The notes under the pieces: generated by a model
Seen by the model: only the letters and a program-made list of their open reading frames with translations
The model's database searches: none
What the model was told of the DNA's origin: nothing
Program-made: the position numbers and the translations under genes
Virus record (IMG/VR): IMGVR_UViG_3300037110_000209
Span: 1-25,424 of that record
DNA from: a virus
Direction: 5' to 3' (one strand)
Length of the DNA: 25,424 bases
In this document: positions 118 to 24,397 of the stretch, in pieces
How positions within the stretch are numbered: the first letter of the stretch is position 1
How the letters are laid out: every line of letters starts with the position of its first letter

Positions 118-315
118 CTATCTTTCTATTAAACCGTTTAGGATATCATTTTTCTGAAACTTTCTAATATCAGGATGTCCTTCTATTTTAGAACATGAAT
201 AATATCTTACCTTTTCGCCATCAATATTTTTAGAAATATATCTAAAATAATTAACAACCCAAATTGAATCTTCAAAAATGAATTTAGCGCCTGATTTAAT
301 GTTTTTTGTTTTCAT
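118..315 (-). CDS. Small hypothetical protein, 65 residues
   Basis: I do not recognise the family. The product is a basic 65-residue protein with no signal peptide and no membrane segment. It begins MKTKNIKSGAKFIFEDSIWV and has an aromatic core (WVVNYFRYI, residues 19-27). The gene stands alone as a transcription unit: it is preceded by the 135-bp repeat that carries a promoter (309-443) and is followed by a terminator at 51-84. Its start codon lies inside the repeat, so its leader and first bases are identical to those of the 17441-17791 gene. The two proteins share only the first residues (MK) and are otherwise unrelated by eye. Being expressed from the same promoter as the deazaguanine operon suggests the same timing, but gives no function. 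Confidence 0.75.
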   Translation of the reverse strand: MKTKNIKSGAKFIFEDSIWVVNYFRYISKNIDGEKVRYYSCSKIEGHPDIRKFQKNDILNGLIER

Positions 316-350
316 AATTTTTGCTATTTTTTTAATTGTTTTTAATGACG

Positions 351-380
351 TAAATATACAACTTATATTTTTAAAAACCT
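351..380 (-). promoter_or_regulatory. Promoter of the 65-residue gene (copy 1)
   Basis: On the minus strand the box TATATTTA (351-358) lies 36 bases upstream of the start codon. It is preceded by GTTTTTAAAAATATAAGTTG. The same box precedes the genes starting at 9302, 13503, 17791, 21969 and 24397. It fits the TAnnTTT core of Bacteroidota -7 elements, so a phage promoter read by the host polymerase is inferred. Confidence 0.6.
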
Positions 381-386
381 AATAAT

Positions 387-425
387 TTATCAATTATTTT
401 TAAAAAAGTTTTAATTAATTGATAA
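387..425. promoter_or_regulatory. Operator-like 10-bp inverted repeat upstream of the promoter
   Basis: The arms TTATCAATTA (387-396) and TAATTGATAA (416-425) are exact reverse complements separated by 19 bases, that is, about two helical turns between equivalent points of each arm. They lie just upstream of the -33 region. The identical pair occurs at 17863-17872 and 17892-17901. The spacing and position suit a dimeric activator or repressor, but the very AT-rich context makes chance palindromes more likely than usual. Confidence 0.35.
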
Positions 426-462
426 TCAGATATTTATATAATTCACCATCGCCTATATGTAA

Positions 463-9320: not shown

Positions 9321-9352
9321 TAAATATACAAACTATATTTTAAAATAAAAAC
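9321..9352 (-). promoter_or_regulatory. Promoter of the recombination operon
   Basis: TATATTTA (9321-9328, minus strand) lies 18 bases before the ATG at 9302 and follows GTTTTTATTTTAAAATATAG, close to the sequence upstream of the 135-bp repeat promoter. It falls in the only gap between dnaE and the downstream operon. Confidence 0.55.
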
Positions 9353-12300: not shown

Positions 12301-12823
12301 ATTTAACTACAACAGATTCTCCTATTATAGGTTTAATTTTATTCTTTTTACACTTTAACTGAAAATCAAGTACTCCAGCTAATGTATTTCTTTCACAAAT
12401 ACCGAGAGATAAAATATTATGAAATAAAGCTTTTTTACACCAAGTAGAATAATCTTTAGATCCATTTAATAATTCATTTTCACCATGAATACCTAAATGA
12501 CAAAATTCTTCAATAAATTCTTGAGAGGCTTTTCCTAAATTACGAAAAGGAATAAGGTGAACTTTTTTCTTATCTGAATAATAAAAACGCCGTCCAAATT
12601 TAAAGGCATAAAAATCAACAAGAGATTCTTGTTCAGATTCTTCTTCATCTAAAATTAATTCAAAACTATCATCAAAAATCTTACCCCCTTTTTCTTTTAT
12701 AAAAAGGAATCTCCCAATATCTTTTATTAAGAAGATACTGGGAGATTCTTTAGAAATAGCAAGCTTATTTTCTAAAGCTTGCTTTTCTAAAGCTTGCTTT
12801 TCTAAAGCTTGCTTAAATATCAT
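9356..12823 (-). CDS. dnaE: DNA polymerase III alpha subunit, DnaE type
   Basis: This 1155-residue C-family polymerase is the phage replicase. A non-standard N-terminal region (1-107) precedes a PHP domain that starts at CHLGIHGENELLNGS (H109, H113); the usual LTDHG metal motif is replaced by LGICERN, so the PHP domain is probably inactive. The catalytic core has GVGRGSSAGS (447-456), the aspartate pair in SPDIDSDF (D491, D493) and the third aspartate in KEDILGIQ (D651). Further family motifs are FQEQIMQA and GFNKSHAAAYA. The C-terminus has an OB fold (VVVCGVVSEIIIK). No DnaQ-like exonuclease gene is visible in this window. The first residues repeat KQALE three times. The start overlaps the previous gene's stop as ATGA. 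Confidence 0.95.
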   Translation of the reverse strand: MIFKQALEKQALEKQALENKLAISKESPSIFLIKDIGRFLFIKEKGGKIFDDSFELILDEEESEQESLVDFYAFKFGRRFYYSDKKKVHLIPFRNLGKASQEFIEEFCHLGIHGENELLNGSKDYSTWCKKALFHNILSLGICERNTLAGVLDFQLKCKKNKIKPIIGESVVVKSTEGSNAIFKLFVENEEGWFNLLKINKEINIDNFSFIAEESLLLKSEGLVLVIDPKYFLFDSLKIRKYLKSFKRVYYQIDSVVFDKDDKDKDYLLNLQKFINSSFEPILISDAYYIDRDDYEIKIVLNQIADKRDPVSKNQYFKDYEDQLLELSPLFEDKFEIFSVIIEKARNNTINVKNDCNFEISTSKKYFPEFKLTPEQVEIYGDKECLFWSLIQKGIESKLPKNFDKDLYYNRIQTEFEVIQSGNFFDYFLILWDIIDWSQKNGILCGVGRGSSAGSLIAFLLDLVKIDPIKYDLLFERFLNTGRVAKGASPDIDSDFPASRRIEVKHYIESKYGINHVCSVGTYTSLQLKAAIKDLSRQESINIGTLNYITSVLDIEDNANPKWEELFLNAINKPQLKSFILEHPNIIENIELCLGQPKSTSVHACAMIIVSDNKTIFEQIPVRWGEKDGEKILVSEWQGEMLADAGYLKEDILGIQQLDKFAFILDLIKKTADKDIDIYKIPLDDKRVYYLFQEGYNADSFHFGSKGLTNYSKDVKPENIEDLIAMIALYRPGVMESNMHNEYVFLKEGKKEPRYDFGLEEVTRNTYSIIIFQEQIMQACSILGGFDLVEADDIRRAMGHKDRKLLESYKSKFITNATEIKGCPLKEADDIWNKLEKFALYGFNKSHAAAYAITGYISQWLKINYPIQFWTAAFEFAKEDDIPFYLSEIKKTGDLVKIKPPDINKSSIKFTTDFEKGFIYWSISGIRNCGDVSTEVIMNERNINGNFFSFEEFIQRVPKAKINKTVVENLVLAGCFDEIENIKRPIERINILKKYNKYRSKKEKSFIEDNITYLNKDWWWLLQQKSVSNLAYFKYKEIFNQNQKGWNIDKYFDINKLNFHDEDYASVRKKVVVCGVVSEIIIKNSKKGEFAQIKIENNYDFIWIIFWSEIWEQFKQQIIESEKKILIINGCIAYDNYKKENVLQTEDSTQIEIYS
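12771..12815. repeat. 15-bp tandem repeat at the dnaE start
   Basis: Three copies of TCTAAAGCTTGCTTT (plus strand; 12771-12785, 12786-12800, and 12801-12815 with one change) lie just inside the dnaE start. Each copy encodes five residues, giving KQALEKQALEKQALE. Gain or loss of a unit keeps the frame, so the N-terminal length may vary between relatives. Confidence 0.9.
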
Positions 12824-13503
12824 GACTTTTGATTTTTAACAAAAACAGTGCGTGCAAACTGGTAACGAACACCCATATTCTTAGCTACAGAGCTAACAGA
12901 TAAACCAAAATTAAATAATTTAACCATTTTTTCAGTTTTATTGAGAGTATTGTCAATTAATACTTTCTTTTGTTCGTCATCCCATTCGACTTCTGTCATC
13001 TTTTCTTTCTTTTCCTTCTTTTCCTTTGGAATTTTAGTCTCTTTTTCAACTTTTTTACCAACAGGTTTTAAATTTTCAAGTTGACAAACCTCACTGTGTA
13101 AATCACAAACAGCTTTTGCTTGATCTTCTGTAAGTTCAGCATAGTTATCAACTTCACCAATAATTTTAAAAACCTTTTCTATATACTGATGATTCGCGAG
13201 CTTATACATCTTATCGATACATTCATCAACCTCCTTAGCACGATCAGCAGTAATGAGGTTGGATTCATTATCCTTTACTACATCTTTTTGTATAAGAGCA
13301 TCTTTTTCATTTTCCATAACATCTTTTTGTTTTATTTCATTTATTTCAACAATCTTTTGTCCACTTCTACTTATAGCGATTTCAAGAGCTATTTTCTTTT
13401 CTTCTTCTGAAGAAAAGGAATCTGTCTTTATTTTCTTCTCAAGTTGATCTTTGGAGTACTTTCTTAACCTATTAAAGGTTACATCATAATCTGTTTTTTT
13501 CAT
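12820..13503 (-). CDS. Unknown protein with C-terminal helix-turn-helix-like segment
   Basis: The 227-residue protein is highly charged. The first 85 residues are lysine- and glutamate-rich and probably extended or helical. A central helical block (AKEVDECIDKMYKLANHQYI and onward, about 89-150) is followed by a lysine linker (KIPKEKKEKKEK). The last 35 residues (LFNFGLSVSSVAKNMGVRYQ and following) look like a helix-turn-helix of the kind used to recognise DNA. It is encoded immediately upstream of dnaE with an ATGA overlap and is driven by a promoter at 13547. It could be a polymerase accessory factor or a transcription regulator. I do not recognise the family. Confidence 0.7.
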   Translation of the reverse strand: MKKTDYDVTFNRLRKYSKDQLEKKIKTDSFSSEEEKKIALEIAISRSGQKIVEINEIKQKDVMENEKDALIQKDVVKDNESNLITADRAKEVDECIDKMYKLANHQYIEKVFKIIGEVDNYAELTEDQAKAVCDLHSEVCQLENLKPVGKKVEKETKIPKEKKEKKEKMTEVEWDDEQKKVLIDNTLNKTEKMVKLFNFGLSVSSVAKNMGVRYQFARTVFVKNQKS

Positions 13504-13546: not shown

Positions 13547-13576
13547 TAAATATACAATATATATTTTTTTAAATAC
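13547..13576 (-). promoter_or_regulatory. Promoter of the HTH-dnaE unit
   Basis: TATATTTA (13547-13554, minus strand) preceded by AAAAAAATATATATTG lies 43 bases before the ATG at 13503. It matches the box used by the other units in this window. Confidence 0.55.
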
Positions 13577-13605: not shown

Positions 13606-13634
13606 ACTTAATTTAGAATCATTCTAAATTAAGT
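13606..13634 (-). terminator. Hairpin terminator at the end of the deazaguanine operon
   Basis: A 14-bp perfect inverted repeat (arm ACTTAATTTAGAAT, 13606-13619 with 13621-13634) overlaps the queC stop codon. On the minus strand it is followed, nine bases later, by TTTTTT. The stem is AT-rich and the T-run is displaced, so termination may be partial. Confidence 0.55.
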
Positions 13635-14392
13635 ATTTTCTTAGCATGAAAAACAATATCTCTCCAGGGTTGAATATATTCTACAGGATCTTGACGTTTT
13701 ATATTAATAAAAGCTTCAATTCTTTCAATATCAGCCCCTGACTTACCGGAAGACCTACCTTCTTTATCTGGATTATAAGAAGTGTTGGTATTTCTCAATA
13801 TAGTATCAAAATCTAAATGTAATTGTTTACAGTTATTTAAACAATCTTTTAATATAGATGTTTTGTTGACAGTTATATATGGGGTATGATAAGATACCTT
13901 TTCTGAGCCCCAGTTACCTATTTTAAAAGCATATTCTATTGCGTCTCGAAATTCCGCCCGGCAATCAGCGTAAATTTCGTGGTCGCCCGCGTGAATGCCT
14001 AAGCATATTTCAACATTACCATTTATCTCGTTTGATATTGATAAGGCATAGCCAAAAATAACAGAACTAAATATAGCGTTTCGGTTTGGAACTACGGTTA
14101 AAGCCATATTAGCTTGCTCATAATGACCTTCAGGGACCTCTATATCATTTGAAGTAAGGGCAGATTTAAACATAGTTCCCAATATCGATAAATCGATTAT
14201 TTTATGATCTACATTAAAACCTTTTTCTTGTAAATATAAAATATTTTTAGAGGCTCTTTCTAATTCTATTTTATGCTTTTGCCCATAATTAAAACTAATA
14301 GCATGAACTGTTGTATATCCGTTTGCTAATAAATGAATCAATAAACATGTTGAATCCATGCCCCCGCTAAGTGAAAGTACTGCTGTTTTCAT
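13619..14392 (-). CDS. queC: QueC-like 7-cyano-7-deazaguanine synthase, zinc cysteines lost
   Basis: QueC uses ATP and ammonia to turn 7-carboxy-7-deazaguanine first into the amide and then into preQ0. The PP-loop SGGMDST (residues 9-15) and the family motif GIHAGDHEIYADCR (132-145) are intact, as are the FNYGQKH and VPNRNAIF segments. At 257 residues it is slightly longer than bacterial QueC (about 220-230). The C-terminal zinc site, normally four cysteines in a C...CGxCxxC arrangement, reads SYNPDKEGRSSGKSGAD: the cysteines are replaced by S205, S215, S218 and D221 while the surrounding residues are kept. The enzyme may be structurally altered, or may stop at the amide (ADG). It is the last gene of its operon. 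Confidence 0.9.
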   Translation of the reverse strand: MKTAVLSLSGGMDSTCLLIHLLANGYTTVHAISFNYGQKHKIELERASKNILYLQEKGFNVDHKIIDLSILGTMFKSALTSNDIEVPEGHYEQANMALTVVPNRNAIFSSVIFGYALSISNEINGNVEICLGIHAGDHEIYADCRAEFRDAIEYAFKIGNWGSEKVSYHTPYITVNKTSILKDCLNNCKQLHLDFDTILRNTNTSYNPDKEGRSSGKSGADIERIEAFINIKRQDPVEYIQPWRDIVFHAKKILNLE

Positions 14393-14403
14393 ATTTAAAA
14401 TTT

Positions 14404-14910
14404 TTAAAAAAAGAAATTATGATTATTTATTTTAGGTTTTAAACCTCTTAAAATTAAAAGTTTTTGGTAGGAAGGTTTAACTTCTATTTCAAATGAAGAA
14501 AAAAGACTATCTAAAAAAAGATTACACTCTTTATGAAAATATCCATTCATCAACCACTTTTTATTTGTATTAAAAAGATCTTTCCATAAATCTACTCTTT
14601 CTTTTAAAGAGTATTTTTTAAAATCTTGTTCTTGAATAGTTAATGATTTTTCTTCTTTTGGTTGTAAACTTTTATAAAAGTTTATTTCTTCTTGGATTCT
14701 TTGTCTCTTGATGAGATCTTTTATTGCTCTTTGAAATCCCTCTAACCAATTAACAACTCTTTCCCATCTATCTAAAGTACTTGTTTGATTGTAATAATCA
14801 AACACCTTTTCAAGTTTTAATTCTAAATTATCATTAAATTTACCTTTCAATGATGATCTTAAAATCTGCCATTCAATTTCATACTTAGATATAGTTACCG
14901 ATTTTCTCAT
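14404..14910 (-). CDS. Unknown protein between dpdA and queC, 168 residues
   Basis: I do not recognise the family. The protein is basic and helical, with several tryptophans (WERVVNWLEGFQRAIKDLIK, residues 48-67; ERVDLWKDLF; NKKWLMNGYF). There is no signal peptide, membrane segment or metal motif. It lies 30 bases after dpdA and 11 before queC in the modification operon, so a role in DNA modification is a reasonable inference: a DNA-binding partner of DpdA, a further tailoring step, or a structural subunit. The tryptophan-rich helical build resembles a binding protein more than an enzyme. It is the only gene of the operon between two deazaguanine enzymes with no assigned function. Confidence 0.75.
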   Translation of the reverse strand: MRKSVTISKYEIEWQILRSSLKGKFNDNLELKLEKVFDYYNQTSTLDRWERVVNWLEGFQRAIKDLIKRQRIQEEINFYKSLQPKEEKSLTIQEQDFKKYSLKERVDLWKDLFNTNKKWLMNGYFHKECNLFLDSLFSSFEIEVKPSYQKLLILRGLKPKINNHNFFF

Positions 14911-14940
14911 ATATAATTTTTATTTAAAAATAAGACTTTT

Positions 14941-15732
14941 TTATAAATTAGCAAAGCTTTTAAATAAATTAATATTCTTATAAATAATTTCTTTATTTTT
15001 TAAAGGTTCTTCGAAGAAATCAATCATTTTAGCTCCTAATTTGAACTCAAGACCCATATTTTGATATTCGATTCCATTTAATCCATGTATAACTGGTGAT
15101 GAAGTATCAATTGATTTAATAAAATTAAAACGAGAACTTTTATAAAAAAATAACTCCTGTGGCAGAGAAATACCAAGTAAATGATGTCTTTTATCTTTTT
15201 TAATAATATTAAGCTGTAAAAGTTGATCTAAAAGCATATAACGACCTACACTTCTACCTATATCTTTAGATAAGCCTGAAAGCTTAGAATAAAAACTATA
15301 GCCAAAACTTATAGCAATAACATCAACATAGGGTTCTATATATTCATAACACATTTTATATTCTTGCAGTGAAGAACCGTGTATTACTCCTATTTTCTTC
15401 GAGCGACTGTTACATTTTTTTGAAAGAAAATTATCAAATAATTCAATTGTACCTTCATAATCATCGAATGAATCTGGAATGATATAATAAGTAGGATTGA
15501 GATCTTCTATTTCTTTAATAAATAGATCAGAATCCCAAGCTTTACCTAATTCGAATAAAGAATTATCTAAAATAACTTCTCTACCTTGTTTTAATGATTC
15601 CTGAAAAAAAGATTTATATTGAGGATAGTTCTCAAATAAATGAACTAAAGCATAATCATAATCATTAAAATTACGACTTTCTTCAAGTAAACATAAAGGT
15701 GTCTCGTGACTAACTAAAAGCTTTCCCATCAT
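14941..15732 (-). CDS. dpdA: DpdA-like DNA-guanine transglycosylase
   Basis: The 263-residue protein resembles the phage DpdA group, relatives of tRNA-guanine transglycosylase that swap guanine in DNA for a 7-deazaguanine. Visible features are VILDNSLFELG (D56), IIPDSFDDYEGT (D87), the TIM-barrel strand GVIHGSSLQEY (115-125), VIAISFGYSFY, and a C-terminal block with HHLLGISLPQELFFY and SIDTSSPVIHGLNG. It lacks the C-terminal zinc site of bacterial tRNA enzymes and is shorter (about 370 residues there). The full preQ0 pathway encoded nearby supports a DNA rather than tRNA substrate. The start overlaps the MazG-like stop; M1 (15732) and M2 (15729) are both possible. The exchange releases free guanine. 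Confidence 0.8.
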   Translation of the reverse strand: MMGKLLVSHETPLCLLEESRNFNDYDYALVHLFENYPQYKSFFQESLKQGREVILDNSLFELGKAWDSDLFIKEIEDLNPTYYIIPDSFDDYEGTIELFDNFLSKKCNSRSKKIGVIHGSSLQEYKMCYEYIEPYVDVIAISFGYSFYSKLSGLSKDIGRSVGRYMLLDQLLQLNIIKKDKRHHLLGISLPQELFFYKSSRFNFIKSIDTSSPVIHGLNGIEYQNMGLEFKLGAKMIDFFEEPLKNKEIIYKNINLFKSFANL

Positions 15733-16070
15733 CTATTATCTCCAGAACCGCTAATTAAATTTCTTTCTTTTCTCGAAGCTAATTTATCAATATTTTGTTG
15801 AGCAATTTCTTCTAAAGAAAGACCTAATTCATCACATAAAGCAGCCACATACCACAATACATCACCAATTTCTTTTGAAATTTCTTCTTTTCTCTTTTCA
15901 GGTATTATACCTTGAGAATAAAAATCAAACTCGTCTCGGAGATACTTTTTTACTTTTTCAGCAACTTCACCAGCTTCACCTGTTAATCCCAATGTTACAT
16001 AAGGAATAGCAATTGATGGGTCGTAGATTTTTGAAGTGATTGCTTTTTTTTGATAATCATTTAATGTCAT
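15729..16070 (-). CDS. MazG-like nucleotide pyrophosphohydrolase
   Basis: The 113-residue all-helical protein has the metal-binding signature of the MazG superfamily: GEAGEVAEKVKKYL gives E32 and E35, and EISKEIGDVLWYVAAL gives E67 and D70 (ExxE...ExxD). Such enzymes split NTPs or dNTPs to monophosphate and pyrophosphate. In phages they shape nucleotide pools or lower alarmone levels. It overlaps dpdA by 4 bases (ATGA) and follows a small unknown gene by 4 bases. In this operon a role in trimming guanine nucleotides is plausible, but the substrate cannot be read from the sequence. Confidence 0.88.
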   Translation of the reverse strand: MTLNDYQKKAITSKIYDPSIAIPYVTLGLTGEAGEVAEKVKKYLRDEFDFYSQGIIPEKRKEEISKEIGDVLWYVAALCDELGLSLEEIAQQNIDKLASRKERNLISGSGDNR

Positions 16071-16074
16071 AATT

Positions 16075-16335
16075 TTAATTATTAATTTCGTTAAATATTT
16101 TTTCTGCTCTTTTTAAACTACTACAACACCAAGCCCATTTTCCAAAAGACTTAGATTTAGGGTAAGATACTATTCCAAACTGAGTATTTACTTTTTTCCG
16201 AAAAACTTCAAAATAGACATTGTCTTCTGAAGTTGATTTATAAATATAAGCTTTTTCTGAGGCTTTTACTTGTTCAAATATAAAACCTTTTACTTCCCCA
16301 CGCCCCTCTATAGTTACAGCTAATTCTCGTATCAT
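16075..16335 (-). CDS. Small conserved-looking protein of unknown function, 86 residues
   Basis: The protein is unrecognised. It looks like a compact beta-rich fold: MIRELAVTIEGRGEVKGFIF, then AYIYKSTSEDNVYFEVFRKK, then SYPKSKSFGKWAWCCSSLKR and a final helix. The FGKWAW segment before a helix reminds me of small phage and Bacteroidota proteins of unknown function. No catalytic or metal motif can be named, although CC at 70-71 is notable. Its start overlaps the end of the phosphoribosyltransferase by 4 bases and it ends 4 bases before the MazG-like gene, so it belongs to the modification operon. Confidence 0.75.
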   Translation of the reverse strand: MIRELAVTIEGRGEVKGFIFEQVKASEKAYIYKSTSEDNVYFEVFRKKVNTQFGIVSYPKSKSFGKWAWCCSSLKRAEKIFNEINN

Positions 16336-16823
16336 ATTCTTACTTCCTTTAAATTTCTATCTAAATTTTTATTATCAAGACCATAACCATAAATATAAAC
16401 TCCTGTATTTAATACAAATCCTACATAATCAACTTTTAATTTACAAGTTTGTCTTTTAAAAAGAGAACATATAAATATAGCTTCAGGATGTTGTTTTTTA
16501 AGCTCATATGTAAGTAAATTTAATGTAGAACCAGTCTCTACTATGTCTTCTATTATAACAACATGACGACCTGAAATATCAATCTCATTTGCTTTGATAA
16601 ATACAGATGCTTGTATTTGATTATCTTTATAACTTTTAATACGACAAAAATCAATTTCACAAGCACCATTATATGCTCTAATTAAATCGGCCATAAAAAT
16701 AAAAGAGCCATTTAATACTCCAAGAAATACAGGTGTAATTTGAGTGTCTTGAAAATCAGATTCTATCATGTTTGCTAATTCATGAACACGCTTTTTAATC
16801 TGTTCTTCTGTATATAAAATCAT
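16332..16823 (-). CDS. hpt: Hypoxanthine/guanine phosphoribosyltransferase
   Basis: This enzyme joins hypoxanthine or guanine to PRPP to give IMP or GMP. The family features are clear: PVFLGVLNGSFIFMADL (residues 31-47), the flexible-loop region RIKSY, the PRPP-binding signature VVIIEDIVETGST (88-100), and a C-terminal DYVGFVLN and YIYGYGLD for base recognition. At 163 residues it is just under the usual 170-185. It is very unusual in a phage. It starts 4 bases inside the folE end and lies in the same operon as DpdA, which releases guanine. I infer that it salvages this guanine into GMP, feeding GTP back to FolE. Confidence 0.92.
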   Translation of the reverse strand: MILYTEEQIKKRVHELANMIESDFQDTQITPVFLGVLNGSFIFMADLIRAYNGACEIDFCRIKSYKDNQIQASVFIKANEIDISGRHVVIIEDIVETGSTLNLLTYELKKQHPEAIFICSLFKRQTCKLKVDYVGFVLNTGVYIYGYGLDNKNLDRNLKEVRI

Positions 16824-17437
16824 TTCTGACAGTTATCAATAAGTTTATAAAATTCTTCACGTGAATGAAGTTCATCAGATAAAAATCTCTTAGACATTTG
16901 AGCTGTACACATAATACTATTGTCCTCAGCACCACGCAAAAGGACACATTGATGTTGGGCTTTTATCATCACAGCCACACCAAGATTATCTCCAAGTACT
17001 TTATCAATATAATCGTGAATCTGCATAGTTAATGCTTCTTGTAATTGAGGGCGTCGCATAAACCAATGAACAATACGATTTAATTTTGACAGTCCGATTA
17101 AATTACCTTTAGCTCCAGGAATATAAGCTACATAAGACTCTCCAACAAAAGGAAGCATATGGTGGGAGCAAATTGAATGTACCTTGATATTACCCTCAAA
17201 AACCATACCAAGATAACTATTATTATTTGGAAATACTGTTATATTAGGTGCTGTTTCATAAGCACCACGGGTTATTTCATTCACCATCATCTTAGCAACT
17301 CTGTGTGGGGTTTTTTGCATATTAGGATCACTCTTCCAATCATAGCCTAAAGCTTCAAGAAATTTACCATAAGCTTCTTCTACATGATATAAAGTCATTT
17401 CTTTATCAACTAAAACAACATTTTCACCTGATTTCAT
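16820..17437 (-). CDS. folE: GTP cyclohydrolase I
   Basis: FolE opens GTP to dihydroneopterin triphosphate, the first step of both folate and 7-deazaguanine synthesis. The zinc ligands are visible in HSICSHHMLPF (C90, H93) and HQCVLLRG (C164). Other conserved segments are TPHRVAKMM (43-51), GLSKLNRIVHWF (115-126) and RRPQLQE (128-134). At 205 residues it has the family's usual length. With QueD, QueE and QueC all encoded nearby, its product here serves deazaguanine synthesis rather than folate. It follows the DUF5664 gene by three bases and overlaps the phosphoribosyltransferase gene. Confidence 0.96.
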   Translation of the reverse strand: MKSGENVVLVDKEMTLYHVEEAYGKFLEALGYDWKSDPNMQKTPHRVAKMMVNEITRGAYETAPNITVFPNNNSYLGMVFEGNIKVHSICSHHMLPFVGESYVAYIPGAKGNLIGLSKLNRIVHWFMRRPQLQEALTMQIHDYIDKVLGDNLGVAVMIKAQHQCVLLRGAEDNSIMCTAQMSKRFLSDELHSREEFYKLIDNCQK

Positions 17438-17440
17438 GTT

Positions 17441-17791
17441 TTACTTCCCTTTCTTTATATTATTAATATCCCTATCATCAAATTCTTTTTTCTCACGGAG
17501 TATATAATCTAAAAACATAGCATTACACTGAATATGACTAACATGAGATAGACCTGATTCAAGATCAATATTTTCACCATTTAAAAAAGCAAATACGTGC
17601 CTTAAAAGAGATTCACTTGTTTGAACCACTGATAAACCTTGTTTCCAGTTATTTCGAGAATATTTTTTTGTACCATGTTCTAAAACACGAACCATACCTT
17701 CAAATGATTTAAAATCAACAAGAGACCATTGTGGTTTGTCTAAATTATATCTTAAACCTTTTTCTTCTTTCTTTTCAACTACTTTTTTCAT
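17441..17791 (-). CDS. dATP/dGTP diphosphohydrolase N-terminal family protein (DUF5664)
   Basis: The 116-residue protein carries the conserved block of this phage family: KGLRYNLDKPQWSLVDF (residues 11-27), VLEHGTKKYSRNNWKQGL (36-53), SLLRHVFAFLNGENIDLESG (61-80) and HVSHIQCNAMFLDYI. The domain is named after the N-terminal part of a phage dATP/dGTP diphosphohydrolase (MazZ-like), but most members are stand-alone and uncharacterised. It is the first gene of the modification operon and has the 135-bp repeat promoter directly upstream, with its start codon inside the repeat. A role in trimming purine deoxynucleotide pools is inferred from the family and from its neighbours; a second pyrophosphohydrolase (MazG-like) lies in the same operon. 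Confidence 0.82.
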   Translation of the reverse strand: MKKVVEKKEEKGLRYNLDKPQWSLVDFKSFEGMVRVLEHGTKKYSRNNWKQGLSVVQTSESLLRHVFAFLNGENIDLESGLSHVSHIQCNAMFLDYILREKKEFDDRDINNIKKGK

Positions 17792-17919
17792 AATTTTTGC
17801 TATTTTTTTAATTGTTTTTAATGACGTAAATATACAACTTATATTTTTAAAAACCTAATAATTTATCAATTATTTTTAAAAAAGTTTTAATTAATTGATA
17901 ATCAGATATTTATATAATT
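17785..17919. repeat. 135-bp perfect direct repeat, copy 2 (promoter and leader)
   Basis: This is the second copy, identical to 309-443. It fills the gap between queE (ending 17922) and the first gene of the modification operon (starting 17791), and contains the start codon of the latter. It includes the 10-bp inverted repeat at 17863-17872 and 17892-17901. Confidence 0.95.
17827..17856 (-). promoter_or_regulatory. Promoter of the folE-dpdA-queC operon
   Basis: The TATATTTA box (17827-17834, minus strand) lies 36 bases before the start codon, in the same sequence as the promoter at 351-380. It implies that this operon is transcribed independently of queD and queE, and together with the gene at 315. 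Confidence 0.6.
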
Positions 17920-17921
17920 TA

Positions 17922-18476
17922 TTATCTTATATTTAAAATTTTCTGAATCTGAAGACTTAATTTCCAACGAGGATCTTTCTTAACTTGATCAATAGTCTCT
18001 TGAATATTTCCCATAGAACAAGGTTGTAAATATCTATACTTAAAAGTAGATTCAAAATATTGTTCTAAACTTTGATTCTCATACACAACCTTTAATTCAT
18101 GACCATGTTTTACTTTCCAACTATCAGAATATAAAGTTACTTTAGGAGATATTGTTATAAAATCAATACCTTGAGGTATCTCCTTTGTTCCGTTAGATTC
18201 AATATTGAGCTGATAATTTCTTTCTTTAAAAAAAGAAATAAAATCTCTATCTAATTGTAACGTGGGTTCACCTCCTGTTAAGACAATAATTTTAGAAGGA
18301 AAATCTTTAATTAAATCATAAATTTGTTCAAGAGTGTATTTTGTATAAACATTATGCTCTGTATCACACCAAGAACATTTTAAATTGCAACCCGAAAAAC
18401 GAATAAATATTACAGAAGTTCCTGTATAAAAACCCTCTCCTTGTAAAGAATAAAAAATTTCTGAAATTTTATACAT
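17922..18476 (-). CDS. queE: 7-carboxy-7-deazaguanine synthase, radical SAM
   Basis: QueE rearranges carboxytetrahydropterin to 7-carboxy-7-deazaguanine. The iron-sulfur cluster motif is CNLKCSWCD (C30, C34, C37), the SAM-binding segment is LTGGEPTLQ (residues 66-74), and the N-terminus has the typical SEIFYSLQGEGFYTGT (5-20). The C-terminus keeps PRWKLSLQIQKILNIR, the usual end of the family. At 184 residues it belongs to the short form (E. coli has about 220). The start overlaps the queD stop by one base (TAATG), so the two are co-translated. The next operon begins just beyond its end, behind the 135-bp repeat. Confidence 0.95.
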   Translation of the reverse strand: MYKISEIFYSLQGEGFYTGTSVIFIRFSGCNLKCSWCDTEHNVYTKYTLEQIYDLIKDFPSKIIVLTGGEPTLQLDRDFISFFKERNYQLNIESNGTKEIPQGIDFITISPKVTLYSDSWKVKHGHELKVVYENQSLEQYFESTFKYRYLQPCSMGNIQETIDQVKKDPRWKLSLQIQKILNIR

Positions 18477-19063
18477 TATTCTTGATATTTAAGTTCTATA
18501 GTTGGATTAATAAATTTAATGCTGCTTAAAAGTTTATCATACATCTCAGGATCTTTCCATTCATCGGAAATAGCTTTAGAAATTATAATATCAGATAAAT
18601 TCCACATCCAATATTTAAGATCATCTCTAAAAGATTCAGCGTAGCCAGTAGCTGTTTCATGTACTCTTACTGAAACTAAAGATACTTCTTTTTCTCCATT
18701 ATTAAACTGAGTGTTTTTAATTATTTTATCAATAACATAAAAAAACATTAATGAATACATTTCAGCAGATGGTGAAACTGGCATTTGTATCCAGCGTTCA
18801 CTGTGAAATTTTATAAAATCCTTAAATTCATCTTTTTCTTTTGACCAGATAGAATAGCAATGATCAAAGCTATCAATAAAATCTTTAACTGTACCTTTTA
18901 ATAAACCAAAATCAACAACCATCTGTCCATTATCTAAACCATTTGCAGATAAAAAGGTTTCTATTATATAAGAATGACCGTGAATTGATTTTTTACAGCG
19001 CTCAGAAGAGCAATCCCTAACAACATGAGCTCCTTCAAAACGGAACAATTTTCTTATAATCAT
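18476..19063 (-). CDS. queD: 6-carboxytetrahydropterin synthase
   Basis: QueD converts dihydroneopterin triphosphate to 6-carboxytetrahydropterin. Zinc is held by H13 (FEGAHVV), H28 and H30 (SIHGHSY), with C23 as the likely catalytic cysteine. Further family residues are MVVDFGLLK (48-56), the SFDHCYS histidine, SPSAEMYS and the glutamate of VHETATGYAES. At 195 residues it is longer than E. coli QueD (about 120), with an insertion around residues 70-95 and a C-terminal extension of about 45 residues. Its native promoter seems to be interrupted: the island ending at 19095 separates a TATATTT-like half at 19088-19094 from the rest, so its expression may now depend on readthrough from iscB and tnpB. 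Confidence 0.93.
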   Translation of the reverse strand: MIIRKLFRFEGAHVVRDCSSERCKKSIHGHSYIIETFLSANGLDNGQMVVDFGLLKGTVKDFIDSFDHCYSIWSKEKDEFKDFIKFHSERWIQMPVSPSAEMYSLMFFYVIDKIIKNTQFNNGEKEVSLVSVRVHETATGYAESFRDDLKYWMWNLSDIIISKAISDEWKDPEMYDKLLSSIKFINPTIELKYQE

Positions 19064-19087
19064 TTAGTACAATTTTTAATTTTACAA

Positions 19088-19094
19088 TAAATAT
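19088..19094 (-). promoter_or_regulatory. Orphan -7 half of the queD promoter
   Basis: ATATTTA (minus strand) lies 25 bases before the queD start and directly abuts the right end of the IS-type island. In the 135-bp repeat this box is preceded by the block TTAAAAATATAA, which here is found on the far side of the island at 21441-21480. Confidence 0.5.
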
Positions 19095-19102
19095 GTGAAC
19101 TA

Positions 19103-19125
19103 CCACTAAACTAAAGATTTAGTGG
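19103..19125. repeat. Right-end hairpin of the tnpB element
   Basis: An 8-bp stem CCACTAAA/TTTAGTGG closes the 7-base loop CTAAAGA. It overlaps the tnpB stop codon, as is usual for tnpB right ends, where the same region forms the 3' part of the guide RNA. The minus-strand context GGAAGC (before) and TAGTTCAC (after) fits such ends. Confidence 0.75.
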
Positions 19126-19939
19126 CTTCCTTGTAAAGGTTAAACTTCACAAGCACACTTGAAAGATCAAGTGGCGCGTTCATCGACGCAATATGACTGT
19201 CAAACCATCGATTCAAGATATTTATGGCTGAATTTAAGTCACGGTCAATAATGATGGTGTCTGATAACTGAACTTCTCTATCTTTTAATTCAATTTTAGA
19301 AGAAAAAAGTTTCTTGGTTAAACAGTTAAGTTGAGTCGTCCATTGTTCATTTATCATCATAACATTGGTATTGTTATGTTGACATTTATAGCCGAGGAAT
19401 TGTAGAAACATATTGATATTAGCCTGATGAAAGGATTTTCTAATACCTTTTTTATATTCGTTTACACCTTCGGTAGACATTAACTTCTTAACATTAAGAT
19501 CACCAATTACAATAGTATTGTAATTCATATTCGCTAATTGTTTACTCTGAATATGTAGAGTTTGTTTGATTTGGGCATTCTTTCGTGTATATAATTGATT
19601 TAATTTCCTTTTTACTTTCTTATGTTGAATAGATTTTTTAGTCTTTTTAGATAATTTCGCTTGAACTTTAGCGATTTGCTTTTCAAAATATTGATTGATT
19701 CTTTTGGCTTTATTTCTGATTATAACCTGATTACCTTTGTTATCGATACCGTGAGCTAATTTTTCCAATCCTAAATCCAAAGCTAAAACAGTAGTATCCA
19801 TCAACACTTTATTTTGATATTTAATAGGTTCATCTACGATTAAATCACAGATCCATTTATTATTTTGTTGAAAGAAAACCACCAAATCTTTAGTTTGGTG
19901 GATGAATTTCAACCATTTATTTAAAACTAAAGCTACCAT
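19106..19939 (-). CDS. tnpB: TnpB-like RNA-guided nuclease, N-terminally truncated
   Basis: The 277-residue frame keeps the RuvC half of TnpB: TTVLALDLGLEKLAHG (D55), YNTIVIGDLNVKKLM and IDRDLNSAINIL (D234). The first 25 residues or so are translated from a hairpin end (19869-19916), and the N-terminal recognition and wedge domains of a normal TnpB (about 370-400 residues) are missing apart from NNKWICDLIVDEP. The usual RuvC-II glutamate is G146. A glutamate at E198 (INEQWTTQLNC) sits where rearranged-site relatives carry theirs. Only one zinc-finger cysteine (C206) remains. The frame starts 23 bases inside the iscB end. It is probably an inactive remnant, although the long open frame could also mean selection for RNA binding. 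Confidence 0.75.
   Translation of the reverse strand: MVALVLNKWLKFIHQTKDLVVFFQQNNKWICDLIVDEPIKYQNKVLMDTTVLALDLGLEKLAHGIDNKGNQVIIRNKAKRINQYFEKQIAKVQAKLSKKTKKSIQHKKVKRKLNQLYTRKNAQIKQTLHIQSKQLANMNYNTIVIGDLNVKKLMSTEGVNEYKKGIRKSFHQANINMFLQFLGYKCQHNNTNVMMINEQWTTQLNCLTKKLFSSKIELKDREVQLSDTIIIDRDLNSAINILNRWFDSHIASMNAPLDLSSVLVKFNLYKEATKSLV
19869..19916. repeat. Hairpin end after iscB, inverted copy of the 21381-21428 end
   Basis: The stem CCACCAAA/TTTGGTGG (19879-19886, 19894-19901) closes the loop TCTTTAG. The flanks GAAAGAAAACC and GGATGAATTTCA (plus strand) are identical to those of the minus-strand sequence at 21428-21381. The two copies thus face each other around iscB. It starts directly after the iscB stop codon and lies inside the tnpB frame. 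Confidence 0.8.
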
Positions 19940-21263
19940 AATTATATATTCTTTTAATATTTTTCACAGATAATACTTTTTTGGTGTTTTCAACTTTAAC
20001 ATATGAACCTTTGTTTTGTACCCCAACAACAATATATTTTTTATTATCAACCCATACTAAATCTTTTGGTTGTATCTTATATCTCTGTTTTCTTATTGAA
20101 GGTTCGAATCCTTTTCTATTTAATTGTAAACCTCTATTGTTTCTATGTTTTTGTCTTATTGATGTTATTGAACAACGTATTTGTGTTGTACCATTAGCAA
20201 TAACAAAAGCATCATTATTATGACTCTTACTTATATTATTTTCTTGTCTCTTTAAAAAAGTTATATAACCATAAGTTACTTTTAAATTAGGTATATCATT
20301 CCAAAATTTCTTTTGTATAATAGACATAAACGTATTAGGTTTATAACTTTTAGCTGGATTTAATTTTAAATTTTTTTTATGAAGTTTAACATGGCACTTT
20401 TCATGTAACAAAGCCAAATTTTTAGGTCTATTTGAACCATTTTCACTTCTTGGTTTACAATGATGAATGTGACTTGAATTTCCCTTTGTAAATTCTTTAC
20501 TACATAACTGACATAATCCTTTTTCTCTTACCATCAAAAAACTTCTTAAATTTTGATAACCATACATGTTTCCTTGTTGATAATCAACACCTTCAATTAT
20601 TGGATTTTCTATCTTCTGAATATCAAAATTAGCGGTTTCGATTATTACCTCCGTTATAGGTAATATAGTTTTTAATCTTTTAATTAAATTAAGATGTGTA
20701 TCATATTTTCTTTGAATACTTGGAGGTAACCACCCTTCTTTCTTTTTTCTATTAAGAAATCTTGGTTTACGATACCATAACTTATTTCTTCTACCTCTAC
20801 GATACATTCTTTTTTCAGTCAATCTTTCAGATGTTTTATCATCTAAACTAACAGTTCCTGAAATAAGTTCTTGTTTAGAGGAAACACAAGAAAAACCAAT
20901 GTTTTTATACCCACTGTCAATACCAAGTGTTATTTCTTGAATTTGATTTTCACATTCAAAATTTAACATAATAGTAAAAGGATATAATTTAATAATTTTA
21001 GCCTTACCATTTTTAATTAATTTTCTTGCTTTAGCAGGTAGACAAGGCATTAAAGGATTACCTTCTAAAGAAATAACATACACAACGTCTTTAAGACCAC
21101 CTGTATGATGTTGGTGTAAATTCACTTCGGGATTGTTAAAACGGGTTTTTAAGTCTACCACACTAAGAGTTTCCTCTTTGTTTAATAGTAAACCACAGTT
21201 GCTACGGACTTGTGAAGTATTCGTAGGTGTGTTCTTTTTAGTTCTCTGTTTTAACTGCTGCAT
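19917..21263 (-). CDS. iscB: IscB RNA-guided nuclease
   Basis: IscB is the ancestor-like relative of Cas9 and cuts DNA under the guidance of an omega RNA. Domains in order: PLMP domain (EGNPLMPCLPAKARKLIKNG, residues 67-86), RuvC-I ITLGIDSGYKNIG (D116), arginine-rich bridge helix (RMYRRGRRNKLWYRKPRFLN, 152-171), RuvC-II EVIIETANFD (E209), HNH with CQLC (C251, C254), HIHHCKPRSENGS (H267, H268), N282 and C290, then RuvC-III SKSHNNDAFVIANG (H348, D351) and a target-interacting C-terminal domain (about 365-448). All catalytic residues are present. The first 60 residues have no counterpart in the family; a GTG at 21083, preceded by AGGTGG, may be the true start, with the omega RNA covering the rest. 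Confidence 0.93.
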   Translation of the reverse strand: MQQLKQRTKKNTPTNTSQVRSNCGLLLNKEETLSVVDLKTRFNNPEVNLHQHHTGGLKDVVYVISLEGNPLMPCLPAKARKLIKNGKAKIIKLYPFTIMLNFECENQIQEITLGIDSGYKNIGFSCVSSKQELISGTVSLDDKTSERLTEKRMYRRGRRNKLWYRKPRFLNRKKKEGWLPPSIQRKYDTHLNLIKRLKTILPITEVIIETANFDIQKIENPIIEGVDYQQGNMYGYQNLRSFLMVREKGLCQLCSKEFTKGNSSHIHHCKPRSENGSNRPKNLALLHEKCHVKLHKKNLKLNPAKSYKPNTFMSIIQKKFWNDIPNLKVTYGYITFLKRQENNISKSHNNDAFVIANGTTQIRCSITSIRQKHRNNRGLQLNRKGFEPSIRKQRYKIQPKDLVWVDNKKYIVVGVQNKGSYVKVENTKKVLSVKNIKRIYNYGSFSFK

Positions 21264-21428
21264 GAAAACATTAATAATTTAATTTTTAAGCTCCCTAATC
21301 AACCAATTACTCTTAAATCTCACGATTCAAGCCCCTTGGTCTTTAGCCAAGGGGTGATTGACTGAAAAAAAATATTATATGGTGTGAAATTCATCCCCGA
21401 AACTGAAGATTTCGGGTTTTCTTTCACC
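21085..21428 (-). ncRNA. HEARO/omega RNA of IscB
   Basis: The stretch upstream of iscB has the properties of an IscB-associated omega RNA (HEARO). On the minus strand it begins with the hairpin at 21416-21396, then GGATGAATTTCACACC, an 8-bp hairpin CCCCTTGG/CCAAGGGG with loop CTAAAGA (21354-21332) and CTTGAATCG. It seems to continue into the annotated iscB frame, where GTTTA/TAAAC (21193-21180) and AAGAG-GAAA-CTCTT with a GNRA loop (21178-21165) form two adjacent hairpins. The 165 bases outside the frame (21264-21428) are the secure part; the 3' limit near 21085 is a guess. In this RNA class the guide lies just 5' of the scaffold, here at about 21429-21450. Confidence 0.75.
21381..21428. repeat. 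Left-end hairpin of the iscB element (5' end of omega RNA)
   Basis: The 7-bp stem CCCGAAA/TTTCGGG (21396-21402, 21410-21416) closes the loop CTGAAGA. Read on the minus strand its flanks match the plus strand at 19869-19916, with base changes in the two stems that keep the pairing. Confidence 0.8.
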
Positions 21429-21440
21429 GAAAATTATAAA

Positions 21441-21480
21441 TTATATTTTTAACAAACCTAATTTTTTATCAATTTTTTTA
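21441..21480 (-). promoter_or_regulatory. Displaced upstream half of a phage promoter, now before iscB
   Basis: The plus-strand sequence TTATATTTTTAACAAACCTA and the following TTTATCAATT match positions 363-401 of the 135-bp promoter repeat with only a few differences. The match stops at 21441, exactly where the -7 box would follow; in place of the box stand the island's left-end bases. A weaker box (TATAATTT, minus strand) is present at the junction and could drive iscB and the omega RNA. Confidence 0.6.
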
Positions 21481-21969
21481 GATAATACGTGTAACATCCT
21501 GTATGTCAACCCAATATTTTTTACTTTTTTCTTCAACCAAAACTTTTTTAAGATTAAAGTCAACATCTACGATACGTCCAAACTTTATATCAACCTCACC
21601 TGCGACATCAATCTTAATATCTGTATTGATTTCATAATAATTTATCCTATCAAAAATTTCCAACTGGTCTCTCTCATGCTCATCCTTATAAATAAAGTTA
21701 GGAAATCCAGAGTTCTTATAGATATTATGATAACACCTTTGCTTCAATACCTCAGATGTAAATATTGAAGGTAGGCAGTTACGTAAGACTATATCCTTAA
21801 TTTTTTCTTTTTTAAACTCCATCACTTTCCCATAAAACTCTTTGTCACGAGCCTTTGGATAAATCTTTTTACGCAATTCAGCTACAATATACTCCTCTTG
21901 AAGCTTTTCAAAGAAATCAGATAAAGGAAGATTTCTGGTCTTTGATACAGGATCACTATTATAAATCAT
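21478..21969 (-). CDS. Hypothetical protein, 163 residues
   Basis: The family is not recognised. The N-terminal two thirds are helical and charged (PLSDFFEKLQEEYIVAELRK, then KVMEFKKEKIKDIVLRN and a segment with SGFPNFIYKDEHERDQLEIF). The last 50 residues look like a small beta-barrel: INTDIKIDVAGEVDIKFGRI, VDVDFNLKKVLVEEKSKKYW and VDIQDVTRII, as in SH3- or KOW-like domains. It has its own promoter (21990) and separates the replication genes from the island. The small barrel at the end suggests nucleic-acid or protein binding. Confidence 0.75.
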   Translation of the reverse strand: MIYNSDPVSKTRNLPLSDFFEKLQEEYIVAELRKKIYPKARDKEFYGKVMEFKKEKIKDIVLRNCLPSIFTSEVLKQRCYHNIYKNSGFPNFIYKDEHERDQLEIFDRINYYEINTDIKIDVAGEVDIKFGRIVDVDFNLKKVLVEEKSKKYWVDIQDVTRII

Positions 21970-21989
21970 TTTAGTTTAAAATTAAATTG

Positions 21990-22016
21990 TAAATATACTA
22001 TATTGTTATCAGACAA
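21990..22016 (-). promoter_or_regulatory. Promoter of the 163-residue gene
   Basis: TATATTTA (21990-21997, minus strand) lies 20 bases before the start at 21969. ATTTTTG at its upstream side could be the -33 element. It falls in the short gap behind the primase gene. Confidence 0.5.
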
Positions 22017-22019
22017 AAA

Positions 22020-23027
22020 TCATTTTAATATTTTTATATTAAGACGATTAAGATTGAACGAAAACGGGTCTTCTAACCTATCCATTACTTCTAAAAACTC
22101 ATCTGTAGTAAGATTATCTGGGTCACAATCTTTCTTCCTAATATGTCCCACCATTACATTAAAATACTTTGATAAATGCAATGAACATTGTTTACTCGCA
22201 GGATAAGTATTATTGTCAAACATTAAAATAACATCAGATACACCCTTATCTTGCAGTCGCTTGATTTGAGGTTCAGATACCTTCTGACCAAAGCAACTAC
22301 AACATTTGACTGTATCGTCATTCCATAGATTTAAATGAATATCAACAGCCCTCTTACTAAATGCACCCTCAGTAAGTATGACCACATTAGTTTTGGAAGA
22401 CACTTCATTAATACCATATAGATAGTACGAGAAATCCGTATCAGGACTGTTATCATATCTCAACATTAACCTACATTTCCCCTGCTGAGCATCTTCAAGA
22501 TTCTTATCATGCCATTCTTTACTATGCATAGAACGTGCAAAGTATCCCTTACAACTACCATCCTGCTCACGTATCGGGAATATAATATAATTATTCTTGA
22601 GACGAGGGTCAATACTGGTAATGCCAACCTCATATCGATCATAATCTATTTCCCTAAATCCTCTTACAAATAGGTATTCATGTTTATATATCCTTTTATA
22701 ACCAAGAGGTAATTTACGGTCTGGCATAGTATAATCAACATCGTCAATAACCTTATCTGCAAGCAAATTCTCTAAATGCTCATTAATGTTGATATCACGT
22801 TCAAAATTTCCTAAATCTGGACGATTAATCTTAAAAAATAATTTACGCAACGTCCCATGCTGAGCACAACTTGCTCTCCAACAATTAAAACTTCCTATAT
22901 TATTTGATAAATTAATACCAAATTTATCCTCATGTCCACACCAAGGACATTGCATTCCTGAAAACCATCCCTTATGGCCAACTGAATGAAGGTTTAATTC
23001 TTGTATTATTTTTTGTCTGTTGATCAT
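22020..23027 (-). CDS. DNA primase with zinc finger and TOPRIM domain
   Basis: The 335-residue protein joins an N-terminal zinc-binding domain (CPWC at C27/C30, then C49 and C54 or H57) to a TOPRIM domain with VVILTEGAFSK (E220) and VILMFDNNTYP (D271). It would make RNA primers for the DnaE replicase, working with the helicase encoded just upstream. It is shorter than bacterial DnaG (about 600) and similar to T4 gp61 (342). In the second TOPRIM motif the usual DxD reads DNN (D271, N273), an unusual change; a later acidic stretch (KKDCDPDNL) is kept. The start overlaps the helicase stop by 4 bases. Confidence 0.88.
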   Translation of the reverse strand: MINRQKIIQELNLHSVGHKGWFSGMQCPWCGHEDKFGINLSNNIGSFNCWRASCAQHGTLRKLFFKINRPDLGNFERDININEHLENLLADKVIDDVDYTMPDRKLPLGYKRIYKHEYLFVRGFREIDYDRYEVGITSIDPRLKNNYIIFPIREQDGSCKGYFARSMHSKEWHDKNLEDAQQGKCRLMLRYDNSPDTDFSYYLYGINEVSSKTNVVILTEGAFSKRAVDIHLNLWNDDTVKCCSCFGQKVSEPQIKRLQDKGVSDVILMFDNNTYPASKQCSLHLSKYFNVMVGHIRKKDCDPDNLTTDEFLEVMDRLEDPFSFNLNRLNIKILK

Positions 23028-24397
23028 TCCTCTACCTCTTCATCAATAAAAAGTTTAATTGTTCTTATGTTATCATAAAATCTACTCTTATTAAACTTCG
23101 TTGCTATATATATTATTTTATTTGCCTTATACTCTCTCATTTTATCAACATAAATTCTACCTGTTTCATTTGAATATTCGCTTAATGTTTGATTAAAAGT
23201 AAATACGTAAGAAAAAGAATTTACAAGACCTTTAGCTCCACTAATATTATGTCGAGTCATTACATATTCAGGTCTATTAAAATCTGAAGGGTCTATATCT
23301 GTAGCTTGTGTAGCTGTAGCTCCTCTTATTAAGAATTCAGTACAAATATTTTTAAATTTATCCGCAATTGCTTCTCTTCGCATTTTTTCACCTTCTGTAG
23401 AAACAGGATAACGCCTACCATCTCCCGGATTTGCTTTTTCTAAATAATCAAGACAAATTAATTCGGGTTTTCTTTGATTTATTTTTATATAATCAATAAC
23501 TAAATTACGAAGATCTAACATTGAAAATGTATCAAAACGATCAAAAGCCATTACTGATATTTCACCTTTTTTATTCTTAATATCATTGACAACTTTTAAT
23601 AAACGCTGTCTCATTTCAGGATCAATATTATCTAATTCTAAATCATGTTTATTTACAGAAGACCAAGCAACATCAATTTTTCTTTCCAATAATTCTTTAC
23701 TTCCTTCTAAAGACACATATAATACAGGATGACCTCTACGTGCGGCTGAAATCGCTCTCCACACTAAGTAAGTGGTTTTACCGCCGCCTGATCTTGTTAT
23801 CAATAAATCTGTTTCTGTTTGTTCTGAACCTCCATAAATTTCATTATCTAAAGGCATAACACCAAAAGGGATTCTTAATTTAGAATGATCATCTGTTAAT
23901 CTCTTAAAATCCCTTTTTCTTTGTCTTTCTTCAAACCCACTAAATATATTTTCAAAATAATTGACTTTTTTCAAACAAAAATTAACAATTTCCTCAGACT
24001 CCTTAGAAAATAATTGCATCGCTTCTTCTTGACGGTCACTTTCATTATATACATCTGTTACTTTGTAATACAATTCTTGAAACTTCGCTCTCTTAATATA
24101 TTTTTCAAATTGTTTTAAAGATTCATCTTTATCAACCAACTTTGTATTTGAAATATCGGAGAGTATTTGTTGTGCTTTATAATCTGAAACATTTATTTGT
24201 GAAATAGCTCCTATAGTCGGGAGCTTATTATTATTAGTATGATAAGTGATCATATCTTTCAATATCTTCTTATATTCCTTTAATTCATTAGGAATATAAG
24301 TATATTTAAGATGTTCTTGAACTATTTCTATAACCTCTTTCTTATAAAAACAAAGTTTATAAACTTCATTAAGAAAATTAATTGAGAGTTGTTCCAT
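23024..24397 (-). CDS. dnaB: Replicative DNA helicase, DnaB/gp41 type
   Basis: The 457-residue protein has a helical N-terminal domain (about 1-160) and a RecA-like motor. Walker A is TRSGGGKTT (residues 201-209), preceded by TDLLI. The following strand is VLYVSLEGSKELLERKI with the catalytic glutamate, Walker B is ELICLDYLEKANPGD (D317), and motif H3/H4 includes RGATATQATD and HNISGAKGLVNSFSYVFTFN. These are the features of hexameric helicases that unwind the fork. The primase follows with an ATGA overlap, as a helicase-primase unit. A TATATTTA promoter precedes it at 24422. Length and layout fit phage helicases such as T4 gp41 (475). Confidence 0.9.
   Translation of the reverse strand: MEQLSINFLNEVYKLCFYKKEVIEIVQEHLKYTYIPNELKEYKKILKDMITYHTNNNKLPTIGAISQINVSDYKAQQILSDISNTKLVDKDESLKQFEKYIKRAKFQELYYKVTDVYNESDRQEEAMQLFSKESEEIVNFCLKKVNYFENIFSGFEERQRKRDFKRLTDDHSKLRIPFGVMPLDNEIYGGSEQTETDLLITRSGGGKTTYLVWRAISAARRGHPVLYVSLEGSKELLERKIDVAWSSVNKHDLELDNIDPEMRQRLLKVVNDIKNKKGEISVMAFDRFDTFSMLDLRNLVIDYIKINQRKPELICLDYLEKANPGDGRRYPVSTEGEKMRREAIADKFKNICTEFLIRGATATQATDIDPSDFNRPEYVMTRHNISGAKGLVNSFSYVFTFNQTLSEYSNETGRIYVDKMREYKANKIIYIATKFNKSRFYDNIRTIKLFIDEEVEE

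What the first reader, a model, noticed from the sequence alone, without database searches (positions are those of the whole stretch)
19088..21480. IscB/TnpB island has split the promoter of queD
The perfect 135-bp repeat shows what an intact promoter looks like: a TAAATAT box, about five bases, then TTATATTTTTAAAAACCTAA (plus strand). At the island, TAAATAT sits at 19088-19094 directly before one end, and TTATATTTTTAACAAACCTA starts at 21441, directly after the other end. Removing 19095-21440 nearly rebuilds the promoter in front of queD. The insertion would tie expression of the DNA-modification pathway to the island, and would place iscB behind the phage's own upstream promoter element.
Basis: seen in the sequence. 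Interest (0 to 1): 0.85.

Follow-up and report, generated by a model that had tools for sequence, protein, structure and literature searches.

The report
Nested IscB/TnpB elements split phage promoter
In a virus of bacteria, one small jumping gene (carrying iscB) has landed inside another (carrying a broken tnpB), and together they interrupt a promoter that this virus repeats along its genome, just in front of a gene for making modified DNA bases.

Summary
Removing it leaves the motif TTTAT at one edge and rebuilds AAAAATATAATTTATATATTTA. This differs from the phage's 135-bp repeat promoter at 2 of 22 positions, keeps the 5-nt spacing seen in all four intact copies, and scores above 20,000 simulated sequences.

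The island is two IS200/IS605-type elements of opposite polarity, one inside the other. Outer: a tnpB element with both hairpin ends, whose TnpB lacks about 168 N-terminal residues. Inner: a complete HEARO/iscB element (19861-21362), whose boundary rule was checked in five relatives. Both elements are flanked by the same motif (TTTAT, or ATAAA on the other strand), and their left ends are 85% identical.

The tnpB guide reads the queD promoter and leader. The intact IscB's guide reads the tnpB element, not queD. Only queD-queE lie behind the broken promoter; the other 7-deazaguanine genes follow an intact copy at 17827-17848. No island-free relative with the same gene order was found. This is a well-resolved new example of known elements; effects on expression remain inferred.

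The parts
21436..21478 (-). Upstream half of the queD promoter (AGGTTTGTTAAAAATATAATTTAT); the last five bases TTTAT (21440-21436) are the motif flanking the outer element
   Evidence: repeat D2/D3; alignment and PWM
21363..21435 (-). Left end (LE) of the outer tnpB element, hairpin GTGAAAG..CCCGAAATCTTCAGTTTCGGG..TTTCAC; the inner 16-24 nt are also the IscB guide
   Evidence: hairpin -17.1 kcal/mol; 85% identical to the inverted copy at 19855-19919
21116..21362 (-). HEARO (IscB omega RNA), full-length match; first base of the inner iscB element is 21362 (GTCAATC)
   Evidence: RF02033, 109 bits, E 9.2e-23
19917..21263 (-). iscB (448-aa frame; IscB-homologous part from GTG at 21083); RuvC and HNH residues kept
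   Evidence: RRXRR 8.7e-62, HNH 2.7e-10; NF040563 303.9 bits; alignment A1
19861..19915 (-). 3' end of the inner iscB element: hairpin CCACCAAACTAAAGATTTGGTGG, ending just before the flanking motif ATAAAT (19860-19855)
   Evidence: fold -17.1 kcal/mol; same anatomy in L012, L013, L015, L017, L030
19861..21362 (-). Whole inner iscB element, 1,502 bp
   Evidence: boundary rule GTCAA[CT]...|ATRAA/ATGA in relatives
19106..19860 (-). tnpB remnant (listed ORF 19106-19939 starts inside the iscB element); RuvC part only, about 168 N-terminal residues missing
   Evidence: NF040570 profile 163-389 of 389; ISCaje1 TnpB aligned from its residue 169
19095..19140 (-). Right end (RE) of the outer tnpB element = 3' end of the tnpB guide RNA: GAAGCCACTAAATCTTTAGTTTAGTGGTAGTTCAC
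   Evidence: fold z -3.34; 146-nt 3' stretch z -4.04
19064..19094 (-). Downstream half of the queD promoter (ATATTTA box) and queD leader; also the tnpB guide (ATATTTATTGTAAAAT...)
   Evidence: sequence
18476..19063 (-). queD
   Evidence: PTPS PF01242 3.6e-19, QueD-like TIGR03367 1.3e-15 but below its cut-off
17922..18476 (-). queE, the only other gene before the next intact promoter copy
   Evidence: TIGR04508 4.4e-42, below its cut-off
17785..17919 (-). Intact repeat promoter copy (core 17827-17848) before the 17791 gene and folE
309..443 (-). Identical repeat promoter copy (core 351-372)
13547..13568 (-). Intact promoter copy upstream of the gene starting at 13503
9321..9342 (-). Intact promoter copy upstream of the gene starting at 9302

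Best explanation
A tnpB-bearing IS200/IS605-type element inserted 3' of a TTTAT motif lying inside the phage's standard promoter in front of queD, without target duplication, so the promoter's upstream half and its TATATTTA box now stand 2.3 kb apart. An iscB (HEARO) element of the same end type, in opposite transposon polarity, sits inside it at its own TTTAT/ATAAA motif. tnpB is 5'-truncated and probably inactive as a protein; IscB and its omega RNA look intact. The queD promoter is broken, leaving queD-queE dependent on read-through or on a weak new start. Shown: anatomy, boundaries, rebuilt promoter, guide identities. Inferred: mobility by a TnpA in trans (none seen in the window), IscB activity, loss of queD promoter strength, order of events.
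For: Joined site matches the promoter with exact spacing. Among the five promoters only the queD one carries TTTAT at that place. LE and RE hairpins. The two left ends are 85% identical over about 65 nt, the identity running out through ATTTAT. HEARO above its gathering score. iscB-only elements in relatives start at GTCAA[CT] and end before ATGA/ATAAA, their joined flanks giving ordinary gene junctions. TnpB truncation. The guide derived from flanking DNA beside the RE, and the transposon-associated motif, are established for ISDra2 (PMC8612924).
Against: No island-free relative of this phage was found, so the empty site is rebuilt, not observed. No tnpA seen in the 25-kb window (a fragment). 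The RE-side contribution is only 7-8 bases in AT-rich DNA (ATATTTA occurs about once per 150 intergenic bp). The motif TTTAT is deduced from two elements here plus relatives of the iscB one, not tested. The tnpB frame remains open, so it may not be dead.
Confidence: 0.85

Rival explanations
1. The promoter half at 21436-21478 belongs to whatever stood downstream of the 163-aa gene, and the ATATTTA beside queD is chance in AT-rich DNA; no single promoter was split.
For: 30% GC window; ATATTTA is common (22 on the minus strand); the RE side alone scores at background (20 against null median 23).
Against: The join restores exact 5-nt spacing and scores above 20,000 random sequences; the cut points are fixed independently by element anatomy, not chosen to fit.
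Confidence: 0.07
2. iscB and tnpB travel together as one composite unit that arrived in a single step, rather than two successive insertions at this site.
For: Both share left-end sequence and flanking motif, so one TnpA could move the outer ends with everything inside.
Against: iscB relatives in other phages are stand-alone elements with the same two boundaries and no tnpB beside them. No second copy of the composite was found.
Confidence: 0.3
3. The truncated tnpB with its guide on the queD promoter is a domesticated regulator (TldR-like) that represses or tunes queD.
For: The guide covers the promoter box and leader of queD; guide RNA 3' end folds well.
Against: Every IS200/IS605 insertion gives a guide matching its flank. 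The two RuvC aspartates are kept, and the N-terminal part that a guide-binding TnpB needs is missing.
Confidence: 0.03

Closest known systems
IS200/IS605 tnpB elements (ISDra2; ISCaje1 of Campylobacter phages)
   Same: Subterminal hairpins, insertion 3' of a short motif without duplication, guide from the RE flank. TnpB aligns with ISCaje1 TnpB (30%), sharing the Gly in place of the usual RuvC-II Glu and an NE..T motif further on.
   Different: Outer element has lost about 168 N-terminal residues of TnpB, has no tnpA here, and contains a foreign iscB element.
HEARO/IscB elements
   Same: HEARO RNA directly 5' of iscB, RRXRR+HNH protein, element from GTCAAT to just before ATAAA; 63-75% identical IscBs in other phages. 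Viral HEARO systems are already described (over 16% of fragments, PMC9755519).
   Different: Target here is a tnpB element rather than a phage gene junction.
TnpB/IscB insertion-site drive (PMC11870625)
   Same: A guide that records the empty site could cut copies lacking the insertion.
   Different: Activity not shown; TnpB truncated; IscB's guide records the tnpB element, not the queD site.

Membership tests
HEARO/IscB element | IscB protein with RRXRR/RuvC and HNH | tested here: met
HEARO/IscB element | Omega (HEARO) RNA immediately upstream, guide 5' of it | tested here: met
   RF02033 109 bits; flank differs among relatives at GTCAA
HEARO/IscB element | Element boundaries and target-side motif as in relatives | tested here: met
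   GTCAATC...|ATAAAT, as L012; ATGA in L013, L015, L017, L030
HEARO/IscB element | RNA-guided DNA cleavage | not testable with these tools
   needs biochemistry
IS200/IS605 tnpB element | LE and RE subterminal hairpins, no target duplication | tested here: met
IS200/IS605 tnpB element | Full-length TnpB with RuvC | tested here: not met
   profile 163-389 of 389; N-terminal part missing, so it is a truncated member
IS200/IS605 tnpB element | Y1 transposase TnpA | tested here: inconclusive
   no match among the 20 window proteins scanned with Pfam; window is a 25-kb fragment
Phage promoter of the 135-bp-repeat type | AAATATA-N5-TATATTTA upstream of a gene | tested here: met
   rebuilt site 0 mismatches in the 15 core positions
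TldR (nuclease-dead TnpB regulator) | Full guide-binding protein with lost RuvC residues | tested here: not met
   RuvC-I and -III Asp kept, N-terminal part absent

The most novel reading that the evidence does not exclude
The nested pair is a reversible switch on a phage DNA-modification gene. Excision by a host TnpA rebuilds the queD promoter exactly, while guides carried by the island (IscB for the inner junction; a tnpB guide served in trans by full-length TnpB for the promoter) drive the island back. The island would thus gate queD-queE and be spread by RNA-guided cutting of sibling phages with an intact promoter.
Probability: 0.08. Interest if true: 0.75.

Novelty: new member of a known kind. 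Interest (0 to 1): 0.42.

Why it matters
It gives a base-exact case of an iscB element inside a tnpB element that share left ends and flanking motif, which bears on the open question of whether one transposase moves both. It also defines a promoter family of an uncultured phage, probably of Bacteroidota, and shows one copy interrupted. IscB-bearing elements in five relatives insert just before an ATGA or ATAAA, often a gene start, so disturbance of phage gene starts by such elements may be common and can be surveyed.

Tried and rejected
Relatives of the phage by primase, DnaE, helicase, queD and the 163-aa gene: only distant ones. Chryseobacterium phage MA9V-3 shares helicase-primase-163-aa gene order but has a short gene and dnaE, not queD, next; its 27-kb stretch holds no exact core motif, only two weak 2-mismatch matches. 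Promoter and LE patterns in IMG/VR: no exact match. TnpB in 395 Bacteroidota genomes at E 1e-15: none. The one LE hit in those genomes (L051) lies in a coding region without a transposon and was dropped as chance. Considered and dropped: the inverted pair 19855-19911/21385-21441 as terminal inverted repeats of one element; relatives show that the inner copy is the 3' end of the iscB element. The Markov test used a pattern with two N positions set where the joined site differs from the repeat; repeat the comparison without that choice.

Full report
What is there. The window is a 25,424-base IMG/VR virus record, 30% GC. Upstream of queD lies an island read, like nearly all genes here, on the minus strand: left-end hairpin, HEARO RNA, iscB, a second hairpin, tnpB remnant, right-end hairpin, then the queD leader.

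The promoter. The 135-bp repeat is perfect (309-443 and 17785-17919) and contains AAATATA-N5-TATATTTA. Four exact cores exist (370, 9340, 13566, 17846, minus strand), each 19-44 bp upstream of a start codon; with up to 3 mismatches the longer motif is found 8 times against 0.38 expected. GTATATTTA occurs six times on the minus strand, all before gene starts. TATATTT also resembles the Flavobacterium -7 box TAnnTTTG (PMC9723704); A-rich leaders, as known from Bacteroidota (own knowledge), suit such a host.

The split. If the outer element ends after TTTAT (21440-21436) and at TTCAC (19095), removal gives GGTTTGTTAAAAATATAATTTATATATTTATTG. Against the repeat this is 2 differences in 22, with the same spacing, and the likeness runs on for some 60 positions (score 74; null maximum 46). 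With the island in place the best scores are 13.6 (LE side) and 6.0 (RE side) against about 29-32 for intact copies. So the LE side may keep a weak start toward iscB, and the queD side keeps nothing recognisable. Only the queD copy of the promoter has TTTAT at that place, which would explain why it was the target.

Two elements. BLAST of the island against the window showed that 19855-19919 is an inverted, 85% copy of 21376-21441. In five relatives (L012, L013, L015, L017, L030) the iscB element begins at GTCAA[CT] and ends, 16-19 nt after a hairpin, right before ATAAA or ATGA. Joining their flanks gives ordinary junctions, for example TAG|ATG in L013. The same rule here gives 19861-21362. Its end is thus the left end of an IS200/IS605-type element read on the plus strand, whereas the outer element's left end is on the minus strand. 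Both left ends are preceded by ATTTAT. The outer tnpB element is what remains: 21363-21435 and 19095-19860.

The nucleases. IscB matches NF040563 at 303.9 bits (cut-off 175) and keeps RuvC and HNH residues. TnpB matches NF040570 only from profile position 163 and ISCaje1 TnpB from residue 169. It has Gly at the usual RuvC-II Glu (VIGDLNV), like ISCaje1 (ICGDIKT), both with a Glu in NEQWTT/NEAYTS. From memory, such relocation of the Glu is described for TnpBs; this is a lead, not tested. Removal of the inner element leaves the tnpB frame without a start codon, so truncation preceded the iscB insertion or removed sequence beside it; the order is unresolved.

Guides. By the ISDra2 rule (PMC8612924) the tnpB guide is ATATTTATTGTAAAAT, the promoter box and leader of queD. 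The IscB guide is ATAATATTTTTTTTCA, inside the outer element. The remaining sites in the window have 3 mismatches or more.

Consequences. queD and queE are the only genes before the intact copy at 17827; folE, a DpdA homologue (41% to an annotated phage DNA guanine transglycosylase) and queC follow that copy. Read-through from upstream same-strand genes is possible.

Limits. No island-free relative with queD in this place was found; no expression data; no TnpA among the proteins scanned.

Noticed in passing
L012, L013, L015, L017, L030: iscB elements sit exactly before an ATGA or ATAAA, in several cases the start codon of the next gene, so these elements tend to land at gene junctions.
   Followed up: partly
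19917-21263: The iscB frame stays open through most of the HEARO RNA, with an ATG at 21263 inside it; a GTG at 21083 after the RNA is the likelier start. The frame is also open through HEARO in L012, L013 and L015.
   Followed up: partly
L041 and L030 (same contig, G010): Another phage carries an iscB of this type and a TnpB of the same clade at separate sites.
   Followed up: partly
13619-18476: folE, queD, queE, queC and a DpdA homologue (41% to Flavobacterium phage immuto) form a 7-deazaguanine DNA-modification set.
   Followed up: partly
21478-24397: Helicase, primase and a 163-aa unknown protein keep their order in Chryseobacterium phage MA9V-3, hinting at a flavobacterial host.
   Followed up: partly
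2133-2228: A 30-base near-perfect direct repeat, 66 bases apart, inside a nonspecific endonuclease gene (1928-2722).
   Followed up: no
12779-12829: Tandem 15-base units (KQALE repeats) at the start of the DNA polymerase III alpha gene.
   Followed up: no
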